From assembly GCF_900104955.1 (NCBI RefSeq), contig NZ_FNSI01000001.1, positions 406,001-470,000 of the forward strand: DNA of 64,000 nucleotides, in the 5' to 3' direction. Position 1 is the first letter of the stretch. Each line of letters starts with the position of its first letter. Source of the DNA: Beijerinckia sp. 28-YEA-48. GTDB lineage: Bacteria > Pseudomonadota > Alphaproteobacteria > Rhizobiales > Beijerinckiaceae. The notes beneath the pieces are model-generated. The model was not told the origin of the DNA and searched no databases. It saw only the letters and a list, made by a program, of their open reading frames with translations. The position numbers were made by a program, and so were the translations under genes. Below are positions 435-8,687 of the stretch, piece by piece.

Positions 435-1871
435 ATGGCCCGCATTCCCTATAGCCGCGTCGTCGATGTGACGGTGACGCGGGAAGATCGCTTTGCCTCG
501 GCGCAAGGCTTTTCCACGGCGCTGCTGCTGACGCCGACCACCATTACCGGCCAGCTCGATGCCACCCGCCGCACCAAGCTCTATGCGACGATCGAGGAAG
601 TCGCCGTGGATTGGCAGCCCACCACCGAGGAATACAAGGCGGCGCAGCGCTTCTTCCAGGCGCGCGTCCGCCCGCCGGCGCTGAAATTCGGCTATTTCAA
701 TCCGGCCGGCACCTTTGCTGCTGAACTCGACACGCTCTATGCCGCCGACCCCGATTGGTATTGGGGCCTGCACCTGAAGGCGCTGAACGATACGGTGAAC
801 CAGCGTGCGCTCGCCGATTGGGCCGAGAGCCGCAACGTCATCTTCGGCCTCGATTCCAACGATATCGACACCGAGACACCGGGCACCGTGGCCGACAGCA
901 GCGCCACGGTGACAATGACCATCGCCTCGCCTGGCGTCGTCACCTGGAACGCTCATGGCCTTGCCGCCGGCGACCTCGTGCGCCTGGCCACCACGGGTGC
1001 GCTGCCGACGGGCCTCCTCGCCGGCACGCTCTATTATGTGGCGGCCACTCCCACGCCCACCGCCAACACCTTCTCTCTCGCCGCCACCCTCGGCGGCACG
1101 GCCATCGCCACCACGGGCACCCAGAGCGGCACGCATACGGCAACAGCGCCGAAATTCGGCGGCTCCATCGCCGAATATTGCGAGAGCAAGAGCTATGATC
1201 GCTCGCCGGTGTTCTATCACACCGATCCCGACAGCTATCTGGCCGCCGCCGCCTGGGGCTATGCCGCCGGGCGCAATCTCGACCGCTCGAACTATGCGCT
1301 GGCGCGGCGCGGGCGCATCGACAGCGGCCAAGCCTATACGTTGAAATTCAAGAATCTGCCTGGCGTCGTCGCGCTCAACAAATCCTCCGCCGTGGTGCAG
1401 GCGATCACCGGCTTCGTGCCCTCGCTCGGCGTGCAGGGCGACGCGGGCCATGCCGCCAATTGCTATGTCAACATCGGCGGCCTCGACATGCTGCTCGAAG
1501 GCACGGTGCCGAGCCGCGCCTTCATCGACGAAATTCACGCCACTGACTGGATGCGGGCGCGCATGCAGGAGAGCGTTCTGTCGCTCCTCGCCAATGCGCC
1601 GCGCGTGCCGATGACCAATACGGGCGTCGGATATCTGATCTCGGGGGGCGTGGAGCCGCCGCTGCGCCGCGCCTTCGCCGCCGGCATCATCGCCGACACG
1701 GTCGATCCCGCTTCCGGCGATCTGGTGCCGGCCTTCGAGACCGAGGTGGACGACGTTCTGTCGATCCCCGTGGCGCAGCGGCGCAACCGCATCGCGCCCG
1801 ACATCAAGGTGCGCTTCCGCTATGCCGGCGCGGTTCATTTCGCGTCCGTCACCATGACCATGCAGTTCTAA
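435..1871 (+). CDS. Phage tail sheath-like protein (DUF3383)
   Basis: The 478-residue product resembles the DUF3383 family, the contractile sheath protein of KPP10-like myophages. The N-terminus (RIPYSRVVDVTVTRED) and the early sequence on falling for a fixed strain-like repeat are typical. The sheath polymerises round the tube and contracts on infection. Residues about 153-239 are a Thr/Gly/Ala-rich beta segment (SPGVVTWNAHGLAAGD, then LPTGLLAGTLYYV) that looks like a domain inserted in the sheath core, a module type I know from other phage virion proteins. The gene starts 3 bases after its upstream neighbour, and the tube gene follows 18 bases downstream, as in a tail operon. Confidence 0.85.
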   Translation: MARIPYSRVVDVTVTREDRFASAQGFSTALLLTPTTITGQLDATRRTKLYATIEEVAVDWQPTTEEYKAAQRFFQARVRPPALKFGYFNPAGTFAAELDTLYAADPDWYWGLHLKALNDTVNQRALADWAESRNVIFGLDSNDIDTETPGTVADSSATVTMTIASPGVVTWNAHGLAAGDLVRLATTGALPTGLLAGTLYYVAATPTPTANTFSLAATLGGTAIATTGTQSGTHTATAPKFGGSIAEYCESKSYDRSPVFYHTDPDSYLAAAAWGYAAGRNLDRSNYALARRGRIDSGQAYTLKFKNLPGVVALNKSSAVVQAITGFVPSLGVQGDAGHAANCYVNIGGLDMLLEGTVPSRAFIDEIHATDWMRARMQESVLSLLANAPRVPMTNTGVGYLISGGVEPPLRRAFAAGIIADTVDPASGDLVPAFETEVDDVLSIPVAQRRNRIAPDIKVRFRYAGAVHFASVTMTMQF

Positions 1872-3159: not shown

Positions 3160-4734
3160 GTGGTCGTTGAAGAACTCGTCGCCAATGTCGGTTTCAAAGT
3201 TCAGGGCTTGGGCGAGCTCAGGCAATTTGAAGATGCGTTAAAGTCGGTCGCGAACCTGGCGAAGGGCCTTTCGGGGGCGTCGGGCTCCGGTGGATCGAAT
3301 TCCGGCTTTGCTGGATTGAGCCAAAAACTTCAGAAAATTGGCGCGGCGCTGGACAAGTTTGATGTCTCGGCAATCACCGGCCTCGCGGGGCGCCTCCGAA
3401 ACGATATTACTACGATCAAATCTGCATCCGGCTCTTGGGCTGGAATTGGCAATATTGCGGGGCAGATCGTCCAAAGATTTGGTCCTGGCGTTGCGGCGGT
3501 GACGCAACTCGTGACCGAGCTTACGCAAGCGGGAATCGAAGCGGCGACCCTACGTAGTCGGTTGCAGATCAGCGCTCAAGGCAAGGGCACAAGCGCTGCC
3601 CAGCTCGATGCTCTGTCTCGCACGTATGAGTCGATGGGGCTGACGGCGGCCGATGCCGAGAAGCAGTTTGGGAGCTTCGCGAGTGAGCTAAATCAGAGCC
3701 TCGATAATGGCAATATACCCGACTTCCTATCGAATTTGGGCATCGATCCGCGAAGCGGAAATGAGCGGCGCGATACCGCTGAAGTGATGAAGGAGACGCT
3801 TTCTGCTCTAGCCGATCGTATCGCTAAGAATCAGGAAGCTTCGGCTCGTCCCCAATCGGCCGAAGAAAGCAAAAGACTTGCGGACGAACGAGACAAGCTT
3901 TGGAAACTCATACGCTCGAAGTTCGGTGAAGAAACGCTCGGGATAATGAAAAAGGGAGGAGGGGCTGCCGCTTGGGAGCAAGCCAGGAAAGAAGGAACAT
4001 CTCGTCGGCCGTCAGAGACAGAAGCGGACAGGGAGCAGAACGCCCGTGTCAGCGCAGCGGCAGCGAAGTTGCAGCAACAATTGGGTGCGTTCGCTGACGC
4101 GTCGCAGAGATTTGCCATTACGATCGCGGACAATCTTCTACCGCCTGTTATTGCTGTTATTGATAAGGTGACGTGGGTAGCCAAGAAGCTGGGATTGCTT
4201 CGCGAAACCGAGGAAGAACAAAAAGCCGAACGAGAAAGAAAGGTAACAGAACTGCAACGCAGAGATAATGTTGGTGCCGCGGACGTAGAATATTCTGGAG
4301 CGGTGGGTCTCGCGCGGAAACTCTGGGGAACGCGTGAGACCGGAGCAAAGGAAGCCAGCGCAGTTGTTGATGCAGCAAGGCTGGTTGATCAAGCGAAGCA
4401 TCAGCTAACGTTCTTTGCAAAAACTCCTGAAAAACGCGCCGAGCGAGAGGAAAATTTGCGTAGCTCTCTCCAGACACTTCAAAATGCGATTGAAGTATTT
4501 CGCTCTGTTCGGCCAGACGCAATTCGGGGCATTAGTCAAGACACGATCGGTAGGAAGGCTGAGGTGAGCAACAGCGATTTTGCTAACGATCAGCGCGTTA
4601 CAAGTGTAACCGTAACAGCCAACTATAATGAAAAGGATGTTGCGACGGCCGTACAACGCGTGGTTATGGCGAGTGGCGCCAACATTCCCAAAGGCTGGAA
4701 TGTCGCGACGCTCGGCAGCAGTTTGACAGCCTGA
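3160..4734 (+). CDS. Phage tail tape measure protein
   Basis: The 524-residue product has an N-terminus typical of short tape measures (VVEELVANVGFKVQGLGELRQFEDALKSV) with Gly/Ser-rich, Ala-rich hydrophobic and charged coiled-coil segments. It sets tail length and is ejected with the DNA or through the tube. By the usual rough rule of 0.15 nm per residue this would be a tail of about 80 nm. The GTG start at 3160 follows AGGAG by a normal spacing. Base composition becomes visibly more AT-rich through the second half and into the next genes, which hints that this section was exchanged separately from the baseplate module. Confidence 0.85.
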   Translation: MVVEELVANVGFKVQGLGELRQFEDALKSVANLAKGLSGASGSGGSNSGFAGLSQKLQKIGAALDKFDVSAITGLAGRLRNDITTIKSASGSWAGIGNIAGQIVQRFGPGVAAVTQLVTELTQAGIEAATLRSRLQISAQGKGTSAAQLDALSRTYESMGLTAADAEKQFGSFASELNQSLDNGNIPDFLSNLGIDPRSGNERRDTAEVMKETLSALADRIAKNQEASARPQSAEESKRLADERDKLWKLIRSKFGEETLGIMKKGGGAAAWEQARKEGTSRRPSETEADREQNARVSAAAAKLQQQLGAFADASQRFAITIADNLLPPVIAVIDKVTWVAKKLGLLRETEEEQKAERERKVTELQRRDNVGAADVEYSGAVGLARKLWGTRETGAKEASAVVDAARLVDQAKHQLTFFAKTPEKRAEREENLRSSLQTLQNAIEVFRSVRPDAIRGISQDTIGRKAEVSNSDFANDQRVTSVTVTANYNEKDVATAVQRVVMASGANIPKGWNVATLGSSLTA

Positions 4735-4862
4735 TCCGCACTGTCCTTCCGCTTCGTCGAGCCGTCGTTCGGTATCGATCGTCGCTGATGTAGTGAAGCG
4801 TAAAAAAGCCTTTCCGTTTACAGTGGTTCGCGTTATGTTCTTCTGGGGCTTGGAGGGCTGAC

Positions 4863-5363
4863 ATGCGCGGAATTCTTGCGGTCGTTTTCATCTTGGCGGC
4901 GTTTGGGGCTGGCACTGCCCGAGCGCAACAACCAGTTCCGAAAGAGGAACTGAAGGTATTGTTGAGTACCTTGATGATTACTGTTGTATTTTCTTCCTCA
5001 CAAAATAGCGAGGCTGATGCTTGTCTCCGGAAGACGTCTGAGGTGGGTAAAATCGTCTGCTTGAAAGAAAAGATTGATGGAGACAAGGCGCAGTACGCGG
5101 TGATGTTGGAAAAAGTTGCGAAGTCTAAGCAAATATCAATATCGAACTCGGGTCTTCTGAAGGGCGCTTCTGAGGCGGTGAACGAGATTTTTGCAGGCGC
5201 CAAAGATGTTCGAGAAGAATTGGAATTTTGTCTCAAAAAACTGGTGGCTAGGGACCAGCTTGCGTGTGTTGAGGAGACGAGCGCCCAAGGTTTTGTTGGT
5301 ACCGTGTTCAAGCTGCCCTTGGCTGTGTCGATCGCCACTATGCTCGAGTCTCTTGTGCAATAA
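4863..5363 (+). CDS. Exported prophage cargo protein A (paired CX11C motifs)
   Basis: The 166-residue protein has a clear signal peptide (MRGILAVVFILAAFGAGTARA, cut near residue 21) and so is predicted to be periplasmic or secreted. Four cysteines lie at 54, 66, 123 and 135, that is two CX11C pairs, each starting C-L and sitting in charged helical sequence; they could form two disulfides across helices. The next gene is a paralogue with the same cysteine layout and an almost identical start region (GGGCTGACATGCGCGGA-like). The gene lies inside the tail operon but is AT-richer than the flanks, as lysogenic-conversion (moron) genes are. No known family is recognised, and no function is assigned. 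Confidence 0.65.
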   Translation: MRGILAVVFILAAFGAGTARAQQPVPKEELKVLLSTLMITVVFSSSQNSEADACLRKTSEVGKIVCLKEKIDGDKAQYAVMLEKVAKSKQISISNSGLLKGASEAVNEIFAGAKDVREELEFCLKKLVARDQLACVEETSAQGFVGTVFKLPLAVSIATMLESLVQ

Positions 5364-5409
5364 AGACATTCATGAGCGGATGTTGATACGCAACAACTTG
5401 GGGGCTGAC

Positions 5410-5916
5410 ATGCGCGGAGTTTTGGTAATCGTTTTCATGTTGACGGCGTTTGGATCTGGTTCAGCGCAAACGCAACGGTCTGTGCCAACACAACAGATTC
5501 TCTTTACGAGTTTAATAATCGAAAAGATGGTCAATGAAGCTGAGAAGTTTCGATCATCGATCAAGACGTGTTTGGACCTGAAGTCAGTAACGCCAAAATT
5601 CGAGTGTCTTCAACGTTTCGTTCTAGCAAGCAAGCTTGTTGTTGATCAAGCTGATCAAGCGATCGATGCATTCTTTGAAATCTATAAACCGGAGAAGATT
5701 TTTCCACGAGCCTCGTTGGATGTCATCACCGACTCGCAGGCAGCGGTTTCCACCTGGCGTGACTGGGTCGCAGATTGTTTGCGAGGTTCTTCAACGATTG
5801 AAGTGAAATCGAGCTGCGTAGATCTTCTTTGGCAAAGTCAATCTTCGGTCATGGAACAGCGAGCGGAAGGGGCGAAAACTGTTTCCAGTATTTTGCAGGA
5901 GCTAGCGAGGCAGTAG
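5410..5916 (+). CDS. Exported prophage cargo protein B (paralogue of A)
   Basis: From the ATG at 5410 the protein has 168 residues with a signal peptide (MRGVLVIVFMLTAFGSGSAQ). Cysteines at 54, 66, 123 and 136 match those of the upstream gene in position, though the sequence between them has diverged strongly. The first 25 codons and the bases before the start are similar to those of gene A, so this is a tandem duplication. An open frame extends upstream to 5191 but overlaps gene A and lacks its own start signal, so the 5410 start is preferred. Function unknown; probably a periplasmic partner or a diverged copy. Confidence 0.65.
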   Translation: MRGVLVIVFMLTAFGSGSAQTQRSVPTQQILFTSLIIEKMVNEAEKFRSSIKTCLDLKSVTPKFECLQRFVLASKLVVDQADQAIDAFFEIYKPEKIFPRASLDVITDSQAAVSTWRDWVADCLRGSSTIEVKSSCVDLLWQSQSSVMEQRAEGAKTVSSILQELARQ

Positions 5917-5957
5917 TTCGCCTGTCTGTTGTGTTAGACGACGGAATCCCATTATAT

Positions 5958-5986
5958 TTCAATAAGATTGTGCTTAATCTTATACT
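5958..5986 (+). promoter_or_regulatory. Candidate promoter with dyad for the third exported protein
   Basis: A good -10-like hexamer TATACT (5981-5986) lies 20 bases before the start codon at 6007, with a weak -35-like TTCAAT (5958-5963) 17 bases upstream. Between and across them is a perfect dyad, TAAGATT (5963-5969) and AATCTTA (5976-5982), six bases apart. A repressor bound there would block the promoter. The stretch is much richer in A+T than the neighbourhood. Confidence 0.4.
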
Positions 5987-6006
5987 ATCGAAAATGGGGA
6001 GCTGGG

Positions 6007-6396
6007 ATGCGAGTATTGGTGGGCTTGGTCTTTGGAATACTGGTGGCATGTTGGATTGGCGTGGCTCAGGCGCGTGACGATTTCGGCTGGACGCTGGACG
6101 ACGCGAAAGCGCTGGTCAAAGATCTCACAGGCAGAGCGTTGGAGTTGAAGGGCTGTGTTCCAGGAGTTGTGCATGACGGACAGGATTGCGCCTTCTTTGG
6201 CAAAGGCCCAAGTCAGTATCAGACCAATTGGGAATTTGAAGTGTCGCCTGAAGGAAACGTTGCCGGTGTAGTATTACGTTATTTTACCGACGATGGATTA
6301 GATTTGGGCAGACCCAGCGATGCAAGATTCCCGGGGCAGGCGATCGCGGGAGTGGTCGCCGTTGCCGCAGGCAAGGTGATACGGGTGCGCTTTTGA
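6007..6396 (+). CDS. Exported prophage cargo protein C
   Basis: The 129-residue protein has a signal peptide (MRVLVGLVFGILVACWIGVAQA) followed by a small globular domain with two cysteines (about 50 and 61) and a predicted beta-rich C-terminus. GGGGAGCTGGG before the ATG is a fair ribosome binding site. It shares its place and its exported nature with the two upstream genes, but not their cysteine pattern. With its own promoter candidate it could be expressed in the lysogen. I do not recognise the family. Confidence 0.55.
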   Translation: MRVLVGLVFGILVACWIGVAQARDDFGWTLDDAKALVKDLTGRALELKGCVPGVVHDGQDCAFFGKGPSQYQTNWEFEVSPEGNVAGVVLRYFTDDGLDLGRPSDARFPGQAIAGVVAVAAGKVIRVRF

Positions 6397-6714
6397 AGTA
6401 CCTTCTGGCTATGTTTAACAAAGAGGTGCTTCCGCCGAAGCCGGCGGGTCTGATGATCATGCCGCAATTTTTAGGGGATGGGCTTCGGCTATCGATCAAG
6501 ACCCCATATTTTGGCTCGTCACGCCGATAAATGATCGTCTCTTACATCTCTGCCGTGCTCGAATGCGCCCATTCGGGCATGATTTGGTGCCGTGATAGCA
6601 AGTGTCACTCTTCATTGAGGCTGTTGAGTATCTGCAAGATTCACTTTTCGCGATATTCGTCTCCGGCCGTTTCAACCACCGTAGGCGCACGTGCGCCAAT
6701 CCATAAGAGGTCTC
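6397..6714. other. Intergenic stretch without a supported gene
   Basis: Between the exported-protein genes and the baseplate module there are 318 bases with no convincing coding sequence. Open frames here overlap the next gene or lack start signals and coding character. Two GC-rich segments near 6430-6450 and 6476-6490 could pair weakly, but no clean terminator is seen. The last bases (AAGAGG at 6704-6710) are the ribosome binding site of the next gene. Confidence 0.5.
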
Positions 6715-7233
6715 ATGCCCTGCGTCATCTTGCGTGACATTGGCGGCGTCGTGGTCGATGTCGTGCTGAAAGAGAGCATCGAGGCGGCCATGGAAGTACC
6801 GGAACATCCGGTCGAGAGTGGCGCCAAAATCGCCGATCATGCGTGGCGGACGCCGACTTCGGCGAGCCTGGAATGTGTCAGCCTCGACGTGATGGGCACC
6901 TATGAAGCCCTCTTCGCCGTGATGAAAGAGGCCGAGCCGTTTTCCATCGTCACTGGCTTCACCGTTCTCGACAATATGCTGATCAACAAGCTGGCGCACG
7001 AGCGTGAGCCGGCCACGGGGCAGGTGCTCAAGTTCACCTGTTCCTTGAAGGAAGTGATCCGCGTTTCCTCGCAACGCACGCAGGCAAGCGGTGGCGGCAG
7101 CAAACGCAGCGGCACCCCAGGGCCTGGCAGCGATCCGCGTGGTCAGCGCCAGAACAATCGTGGCCAGGTGCAGGCGCTGGATATGACGGGTGCCTCTCAG
7201 ACACTCGCTGGACCGCCGCGCGCCTTTGCCTGA
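6715..7233 (+). CDS. Dit-like phage tail/baseplate protein
   Basis: The 172-residue protein has a domain of about 120 residues resembling the Dit-like N-terminal domain of phage baseplate proteins (IGGVVVDVVLKESIEAAMEV, later ITDHAW-type segment KIADHAW and NMLINKLAHE). It is followed by a Gly/Ser/Gln-rich linker-like tail ending in TLAGPPRAFA. Such proteins form the hub collar that joins the tube to the baseplate. The start ATG at 6715 is chosen because AAGAGG precedes it; 8 upstream codons are open but have no start signal. It opens the baseplate gene run. Confidence 0.75.
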   Translation: MPCVILRDIGGVVVDVVLKESIEAAMEVPEHPVESGAKIADHAWRTPTSASLECVSLDVMGTYEALFAVMKEAEPFSIVTGFTVLDNMLINKLAHEREPATGQVLKFTCSLKEVIRVSSQRTQASGGGSKRSGTPGPGSDPRGQRQNNRGQVQALDMTGASQTLAGPPRAFA

Positions 7234-7802: not shown

Positions 7803-8687
7803 ATGCTCAAATGGAAACGCAAGGTGCGCCTGACCATCTCAGGCGTCGGTGGCGGCGCCGTGTTCGAAGGCTCGCAGGCGCCAGAGGATGGTTTCAAGAT
7901 CGATTTCAGCGTCAAGAAAACCTTAGGCTCAAAGCAGAACAGCGGCACGGTGACGATCTGGAATCTGACCAAATCGAACCGCGAGAAACTGGGCGAAGAA
8001 TTCAAAAAGCTCACCCTCGAAGTTGGCTACGAGGACGGCGGCATGGCCGTTTTGGTGGAGGCCGACATTCGCGATGTCGAGCACGACAAATCTTCGCCCG
8101 ACATTTCCTCGCAGATCTCTTTCGGCGATGGCGACAAGGGCGTGAACAAGGGCGCGGTGTCGAAGACCTTTCCCAAGGGCACCAAGCCCAAGGAGGTCAT
8201 CCAGCATGTGGTCAAGCAGATGCCCGGCGTCGAACTGGGCAAGACCAAGGGGCTTGACGATCTGCCGGCCTATAAGCGGCCGATCTCCGTCTATGGCTGG
8301 GCCTTCCGCGCGCTCGACGGCGTTGGCCGCGAGCAGAAGCTTTATTGGAATATCGACCGGGGCAAGCTGAACATCGTCAAGAACGACGAGCACCTGGGCC
8401 AATGCGCCGTGATCTCGAAGGAGACCGGCATGATCGGCGTGCCGCAGGAGACCGACAAGGGCGTGAAGGTGAAAGCCCTGATCGAGCCCGATGTGGTGCC
8501 AGGCTTCATGATCAAGGTGGAAAGCAATTTCCTCGACCTGTCGTCGGGCCGCGACAAGCGCCAGTCCGACGCGGGCGGTGGCGAATTCCGCGTCAATGCG
8601 GTGACCTTCACCGGCTCGACCCGCGACGAGGAGTTTTACATGGAGATCGAGGGCAACCGGGTGCAAGGCGGCAAGGTGGTCAAGTAA
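7803..8687 (+). CDS. Phage baseplate hub protein
   Basis: The 294-residue protein begins MLKWKRKVRLTISGVGGG and contains FKIDFSVKKTLGSKQNSGTVTIWNL, a pattern typical of baseplate hub proteins in gp27 / late control D-like systems. The hub carries the spike and joins it to the tube. The start ATG at 7803 is the first after the palindromic repeat; an open frame reaches up into the repeat to 7659 but that part is not protein-like. The stop TAA shares one base with the next start (TAATG), so the spike gene is translationally coupled. Confidence 0.7.
   Translation: MLKWKRKVRLTISGVGGGAVFEGSQAPEDGFKIDFSVKKTLGSKQNSGTVTIWNLTKSNREKLGEEFKKLTLEVGYEDGGMAVLVEADIRDVEHDKSSPDISSQISFGDGDKGVNKGAVSKTFPKGTKPKEVIQHVVKQMPGVELGKTKGLDDLPAYKRPISVYGWAFRALDGVGREQKLYWNIDRGKLNIVKNDEHLGQCAVISKETGMIGVPQETDKGVKVKALIEPDVVPGFMIKVESNFLDLSSGRDKRQSDAGGGEFRVNAVTFTGSTRDEEFYMEIEGNRVQGGKVVK

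What the first reader, a model, noticed from the sequence alone, without database searches (positions are those of the whole stretch)
4863..5916. Tandem pair of exported cargo proteins with matching CX11C pairs
Two prophage genes code signal-peptide proteins that share cysteines at residues 54, 66, 123 and 135/136 although the rest has diverged. The start regions are near-identical at the DNA level, so this is a duplication followed by fast change with the disulfide frame kept. They lie inside the tail operon in AT-richer DNA. This looks like an undescribed secreted family, perhaps a lysogenic-conversion or superinfection-exclusion function acting in the periplasm.
Basis: partly seen in the sequence, partly recalled or inferred. 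Interest (0 to 1): 0.7.

Follow-up and report, generated by a model that had tools for sequence, protein, structure and literature searches.

The report
Exported phage cargo behind SOS box
A virus dormant in a relative of the rhizobia carries a small block of fast-changing genes for exported helical proteins with paired cysteines, probably switched on by DNA damage and possibly used to keep other viruses out.

Summary
Genes A (4863-5363) and B (5410-5916) encode exported-looking proteins of 166 and 168 aa with cysteines at 54/66/123/135 and 54/66/123/136; the second pair of B is CX12C. Start regions are 79% identical over 75 nt, not near-identical. A third exported-looking ORF (C, 6007-6396) follows. 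The block lies between the tape-measure gene and a Dit-like gene. These two genes overlap in two related phages, so this is inserted cargo, a moron. Four related prophages hold four different contents here. No significant family or PDB-sequence match was found. Predicted fold (low confidence): two helical hairpins, each with one cysteine pair at its turn. New here: a LexA-type SOS box, GTTCGCGTTATGTTC, ends 22 nt before A. The same box precedes another cargo gene in a related phage, and recA, lexA, imuA and rmuC of this genome have boxes of this kind. The cassette is thus probably damage-induced, not constantly on in the lysogen. Function is inferred: periplasmic exclusion of incoming phage is the leading guess (about one in three). 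Against: no box before two of the four slot cargoes; no functional evidence.

The parts
4826..4840 (+). LexA-type SOS box GTTC-gcgttat-GTTC, ending 22 nt before the start codon of A
   Evidence: same 16-mer before the cargo gene of L007, box ending 20 nt before its start codon; 13 of 15 bases equal the Caulobacter box GTTCttgttatGTTC (PMC12700426, passages)
4810..4839 (+). possible promoter overlapping the box (CTTTCC, 18 nt, TATGTT)
   Evidence: inference by eye; the sigma-70 scan did not list it
4863..5363 (+). gene A, exported-looking, 166 aa, Cys 54/66/123/135
5410..5916 (+). gene B, exported-looking, 168 aa, Cys 54/66/123/136
4855..4929 (+). first copy of the 75-nt homologous start block (start codon and signal-peptide region of A)
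   Evidence: 79% to 5402-5476
5402..5476 (+). second copy of the start block, gene B
6007..6396 (+). ORF C, exported-looking, 129 aa, not similar to A or B by eye; 60% identical over 122 aa to a 182-aa protein in the same slot of L007, so shorter here
6390..6530 (+). stretch resembling the C-terminal part of the L007 homologue of C, in another frame (C looks broken)
   Evidence: frames read apart
3160..4734 (+). tape-measure gene; residues 1 to about 341 are 77-100% identical to G168 per alignment block, the rest 24-64%
6715..7233 (+). Dit-like tail gene bounding the slot
   Evidence: PF21821, E 7.4e-25; 95% identical in G168
435..1871 (+). tail sheath gene of the same operon
   Evidence: phrog_205, E 4.2e-66

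Best explanation
A moron cassette lies between the tape-measure and Dit-like genes of an apparently complete contractile-tailed prophage. A LexA box in front of A probably keeps it off in the quiet lysogen; DNA damage, which should also inactivate the S24-type phage repressor, turns it on. A and B are exported and, after disulfide formation, each probably folds as two helical hairpins with one disulfide at each turn. In the periplasm they most likely interfere with genome entry of related phages, at the tape-measure/injection step, so that exclusion begins just as repressor-based immunity collapses. Shown by sequence: insertion, export-type N-termini, cysteine frame, the box, slot turnover. 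Inferred: fold details, disulfides, LexA binding, periplasmic target, exclusion.
For: Insertion: flanking genes overlap by 4 and 1 nt in Aminobacter phage Erebus and Rhizobium phage RHph_N17 and abut in prophages L024, L026 and L028. Turnover: window A+B+C; G168 one A-like gene; L007 one C homologue; G263 a 96-aa protein with one CX11C pair. Box; GTTCNNGTTATGTTCT lies in contigs of at least 55% GC in 31 of 115 loci against 2 of 120 for the reversed pattern. Fold: four helices in both models, Cys pairs at the two turns. Tape-measure link: between window and G168 the variability of its C-terminal third runs into the cargo while sheath (95%) and Dit (95%) are conserved; HK97 gp15 and TP-J34 Ltp, prophage proteins that block injection, are escaped by tail/tape-measure changes (PMC10883804, passages).
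Against: No functional evidence for exclusion. No box before the relatives in G168 and G263 nor before the exported-looking genes of L024, L025 and L026. GTTCN7GTTC alone is not in excess in the window (4 against 2.1 expected). In viral contigs only 2 of 31 boxes with a downstream ORF precede an exported-looking one, and one of the 2 is the L007 contig itself. Structure models are of low confidence (mean pLDDT 63.5 and 64.8, three sequences) and gave no Foldseek match at E 0.001 or better (B in PDB; A in BFVD). The tape measure of G263 is unrelated (2-35% per block), and tape-measure C-termini may vary for other reasons.
Confidence: 0.33

Rival explanations
1. SOS-induced effectors on the host envelope: A and B slow division or change the envelope after DNA damage, helping phage production; like the small damage-induced division inhibitors of Caulobacter in logic, not in sequence.
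For: LexA box; export-type N-termini; Alphaproteobacteria do have damage-induced division inhibitors (SidA, recalled; DidA, an SOS-independent one, abstract start of PMC4211646 in the listing).
Against: Those inhibitors are small inner-membrane proteins (recalled); A and B show no clear transmembrane segment after the signal peptide (highest 19-residue hydropathy 1.64 and 0.83); fast divergence and slot turnover suggest an arms race instead.
Confidence: 0.17
2. Periplasmic regulators of lysis timing, working like the periplasmic antiholin RI of T4 (recalled: small, helical, one disulfide).
For: Size and single cysteine pair of the 96-aa relative; helical models of A and B; timing with induction if the box works.
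Against: No match of A, B or C to an antiholin family in Pfam, PHROGs or NCBIfam; located in the tail operon; two diverged copies plus a different protein C are not expected of a lysis timer.
Confidence: 0.1
3. Periplasmic helper of the phage's own cycle: partner of its tape measure during injection or assembly, matched to the variable C-terminal third.
For: Adjacency and joint variability.
Against: The slot is empty in related phages and holds the different protein C alone in L007, so A and B are not generally needed; a signal peptide sends them away from virion assembly.
Confidence: 0.12
4. A decaying accessory block with little present function.
For: C is shorter than its L007 homologue, with the missing similarity in another frame; outside the genus no clear homologue in samples of 298, 397 and 385 genomes (one doubtful match in G386).
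Against: A and B are intact, the cysteine frame is kept at about 20% identity, ribosome sites (by eye) and the box are intact.
Confidence: 0.1

Closest known systems
HK97 gp15 superinfection-exclusion moron (as described in PMC10883804, passages; the original paper is not held)
   Same: Prophage moron acting at genome entry; [quoted passage not shown]
   Different: gp15 is a predicted inner-membrane protein; A and B look soluble with a signal peptide and cysteine pairs. Sequence relation was not tested directly.
Ltp lipoprotein of TP-J34 (PMC3952083, passages)
   Same: Exported prophage protein with two repeat regions; its tape-measure target is named in the title of a paper cited there.
   Different: Lipoprotein of a Gram-positive host; A and B have no lipobox by eye and no such Pfam match.
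LexA/SOS regulon of Alphaproteobacteria (PMC12700426, PMC9578287, passages)
   Same: GTTCN7GTTC operator; the Caulobacter box GTTCttgttatGTTC differs at two bases.
   Different: The members recognised here in the genome are repair genes; here the target is exported phage cargo.
Tandem exported cargo of prophage L048 (IMGVR_UViG_2896384573_000002)
   Same: Identical 16-mer box upstream of two tandem exported-looking paralogues among virion genes.
   Different: Different proteins (196 and 368 aa), different phage type (SU10-like capsid protein), other slot.

Membership tests
moron (inserted accessory prophage gene) | extra DNA between two genes adjacent in related phages | tested here: met
moron (inserted accessory prophage gene) | base composition unlike the neighbours | tested here: met
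   slot 49.9% GC, Dit 62.2%, window 60.7%; but the 3' part of the tape-measure gene is also low, 51.8%
moron (inserted accessory prophage gene) | own promoter and terminator | tested here: inconclusive
   box present, but no sigma-70-type promoter listed on the + strand; terminator-like sites 5 against 2.5 (sd 1.5) expected
LexA (SOS) regulon | GTTCN7GTTC box close upstream | tested here: met
LexA (SOS) regulon | same type of box before core SOS genes of this genome | tested here: met
   recA and lexA, imuA (below its curated cut-off) and rmuC
LexA (SOS) regulon | box conserved before related cargo | tested here: inconclusive
   present before the L007 cargo, absent before G168 and G263 cargo
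LexA (SOS) regulon | LexA binding and damage-induced transcript | not testable with these tools
   needs experiment
tape-measure-directed superinfection exclusion (as HK97 gp15, Ltp) | blocks genome entry of a related phage | not testable with these tools
   needs experiment
tape-measure-directed superinfection exclusion (as HK97 gp15, Ltp) | membership of a known exclusion or defence protein family | tested here: not met
   no match at E 0.01 or better in Pfam, PHROGs, NCBIfam or PADLOC
LprI/DUF1311 lysozyme-inhibitor-like proteins (considered from recall because of a cysteine pair about 11 apart) | profile match | tested here: not met
   no such family among the Pfam matches of A and B up to E 10 (filters drop most matches above about 0.1)

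The most novel reading that the evidence does not exclude
A damage-timed exclusion cassette: a prophage puts fast-evolving, disulfide-pinned periplasmic injection blockers under the host's LexA, so that exclusion switches on exactly when DNA damage destroys repressor immunity. The same box before different tandem exported cargo in a Rhizobium-type prophage (L048) hints that the arrangement arose more than once.
Probability: 0.25. Interest if true: 0.75.

Novelty: new variant of a known kind. Interest (0 to 1): 0.5.

Why it matters
Exclusion genes are usually thought of as on in the lysogen (general knowledge). A LexA-controlled, exported set would close the gap when immunity fails during induction, and gives a sequence handle (box plus signal peptide between virion genes) for finding more such cargo in Alphaproteobacteria. 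The protein family itself has no significant match in the libraries searched.

Tried and rejected
Recent tandem duplication: rejected, because A is nearer to the G168 gene than to B in the mature part (three-way protein sites: signal region A-B only 8, A-G168 only 4; mature 12 and 38; Fisher p 0.013). A general rule 'this box precedes exported phage cargo': not borne out (2 of 31 boxes with a downstream ORF; control pattern 0 of 13). Box as the phage repressor's own operator: unlikely, the sequence before the repressor shows a different palindrome by eye. Membership of the 96-aa G263 protein in the A family: only weak support (hhalign E 0.056, probability 1%; best shuffle test, B against it, 2 of 500; the strong profile hit is circular, since the protein was in that alignment). 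The G386 match (E 1e-4, inside an 852-aa frame) was taken as chance and not followed. Internal duplication of the two hairpins: weak (A halves 2 of 200 shuffles, G168 halves 39 of 200, B halves 121 of 200). Structure comparison gave nothing specific (A in PDB and B in BFVD were not run).

Sites: 15 at up to one mismatch, against 9 for the control pattern, a small excess. One is the window box, one recA; only three other downstream proteins were put to profile search (imuA, rmuC, a ParD-type antitoxin); the remaining ten sites were only looked at and showed no SOS gene that I recognised.

The crude signal-peptide rule passed 5 of 6 cargo proteins and failed the G168 one; the tape measure, as negative control, failed as it should. 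Slot survey: one search gave 14 places in 13 genomes; G168 was fetched before and 11 regions; the second copy in G063 was not fetched. Tape-measure genes there were recognised by place and size, not by profile. In G276, G148 and G115 they abut the Dit-like gene; G263 holds the 96-aa cargo; G286 and G175 have an ORF without signal peptide in between; G154 was unclear; in G063, G082, G225 and G073 no tape-measure gene lies directly before the Dit-like gene.

Full report
What is there. A (4863-5363, 166 aa) and B (5410-5916, 168 aa) are intact ORFs with ribosome sites (by eye) and signal-peptide-like N-termini. Their only cysteines are at 54, 66, 123, 135 and at 54, 66, 123, 136. Random placement of four cysteines would match this well about 3 to 5 times in a million. 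The last pair of B is CX12C. The block is in AT-richer DNA (A 48.9%, B 46.7%, window 60.7% GC). A third exported-looking ORF, C (6007-6396, 129 aa), follows. It is 60% identical over 122 residues to a 182-aa protein in the same slot of the viral contig L007 and is shorter here, further similarity lying in another frame.

Where it is. Upstream is the tape-measure gene (3160-4734; phrog_9570, E 1.4e-4), downstream a Dit-like gene (6715-7233; PF21821, E 7e-25). Sheath (phrog_205), hub and baseplate genes lie around. Further upstream in the genome are ORFs that read as terminase, portal and capsid genes by eye, and a repressor with HTH and S24 domains, so this is an apparently complete prophage; its ends were not determined. 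In phages Erebus (gene annotated 'putative tail protein') and RHph_N17 (annotated tape measure) the gene before the Dit-like one overlaps it by 4 and 1 nt, and in prophages L024, L026 and L028 the two abut. The 1.98 kb between them in the window is therefore inserted cargo.

Slot turnover. Related prophages with an occupied slot: window (A, B, C); G168, which is MAG Rhizobiales bacterium 62-17, MKVW01000006.1 (one gene, 41% to A, cysteines 54/66/123/135); L007 (C homologue only); G263 (a 96-aa exported-looking protein with one CX11C pair; its Dit-like protein is 70% identical but its tape measure is unrelated). Of the six cargo proteins five pass my crude signal-peptide rule, the G168 one fails. 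The genus set of 51 genomes gave only the three known carriers. The family sample gave 2 of 298 with A, own genome included; the order sample one doubtful match beside the own genome among 397; the class sample none beside the own genome among 385. Three prophages of another genus carry other exported-looking proteins just before the tape-measure gene (L024, L025, L026).

History. A and the G168 protein share 39% in the mature part, A and B 20%, B and G168 18%, with all four cysteines aligned between B and G168. Yet in the start region A and B are the closest pair (nucleotide sites 1-66: A-B only 19, A-G168 only 5; protein level p 0.013). So the A/B split looks old and the start block has probably been homogenised later, as if it served as a constant cassette before variable cargo. 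Between window and G168 the sheath and Dit are 95% identical, tape-measure residues 1-341 are 77-100% per block, but its C-terminal third is 24-64% and the cargo 40%: tape-measure end and cargo vary together.

Fold. AlphaFold2 with three sequences gives four helices in both proteins (A 27-55, 60-91, 97-128, 133-165; B 27-55, 60-95, 100-125, 130-167; mean pLDDT 63.5 and 64.8). Each cysteine pair falls at one helix-helix turn, which suggests two disulfide-pinned hairpins. No Foldseek match passed E 0.001 (B in PDB; A in BFVD). No clear transmembrane segment is seen after the signal peptide.

The SOS box. GTTCGCGTTATGTTC at 4826-4840 ends 22 nt before A. The same 16-mer stands before the cargo gene of L007, the box ending 20 nt before its start; the surrounding 40 or so bases are also alike there, so common descent alone could explain the match. 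Caulobacter LexA boxes are GTTCN7GTTC, two SOS genes having GTTCttgttatGTTC (PMC12700426, passages; table in PMC9578287, passage). In this genome such boxes stand before recA and lexA, imuA (NF033429, E 7e-10, 39 bits, below its curated cut-off of 150) and rmuC (PF02646, E 7e-58); that imuA and rmuC belong to SOS regulons is recalled. The window box is the only exact GTTCNNNTTATGTTC in the genome. By the window's background, GTTCN7GTTC would fall in the 128-nt gap before A with chance about 0.004. This speaks for a real element. Against: no box before the G168 and G263 genes or before the exported-looking genes of L024-L026, and only 2 of 31 boxes with a downstream ORF precede an exported-looking protein. 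One of these two is the L007 contig; the other is L048, a prophage whose capsid protein is 86% identical to that of Rhizobium phage RHph_N2. There the box precedes two tandem exported-looking paralogues among virion genes; RHph_N2 has other small hypothetical genes after its capsid gene, whose N-termini I did not examine, and no GTTCN7GTTC in that 8.9 kb.

Reading. Anatomy (inserted, export-type, cysteine-framed, fast-changing cargo): about 0.9. SOS control of the window block: about 0.75. Exclusion of incoming phage at the injection step: about one in three, from position, joint variability with the tape measure and analogy with HK97 gp15 and Ltp (PMC10883804 and PMC3952083, passages). Searches of the paper library showed in their listings no paper on LexA-controlled exclusion by exported prophage proteins; several listings were cut (15 of 137 papers, 10 of 111, 8 of 37), one search found none with all five terms, and most subscription papers are not held, so this is no proof of absence.

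Noticed in passing
L048 (IMGVR_UViG_2896384573_000002), reverse strand 4261-6050: Two tandem exported-looking paralogues (196 and 368 aa, shared CKPDFF/CKPEFF-type motif) behind the identical 16-mer SOS-type box, between capsid and further virion genes of a Rhizobium-type prophage; no Pfam match up to E 0.1.
   Followed up: partly
6007-6530: C is shorter than its L007 homologue; the rest of the similarity lies in another frame, so C may be a broken gene here.
   Followed up: partly
5965-5982: Inverted repeat AAGATT-gtgctt-AATCTT followed by TATACT upstream of C, perhaps its own promoter and operator (by eye, no statistics).
   Followed up: no
L024, L025, L026, upstream of the tape-measure gene: Three prophages of another genus carry exported-looking proteins of about 118-128 aa just before the tape-measure gene, so both flanks of this gene seem to take exported cargo.
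   Followed up: partly
L062 about 7943-7970: Palindrome ACTTGA-N8-TCAAGT next to the prophage repressor start, a likely operator (by eye).
   Followed up: no
L308, L312, L314 (same genome): GTTCTTGTTTTGTTC occurs three times; L312 and L314 seem to share a flanking repeat (similar translated context NKNIIPP), L308 lies before a ParD-type antitoxin.
   Followed up: no
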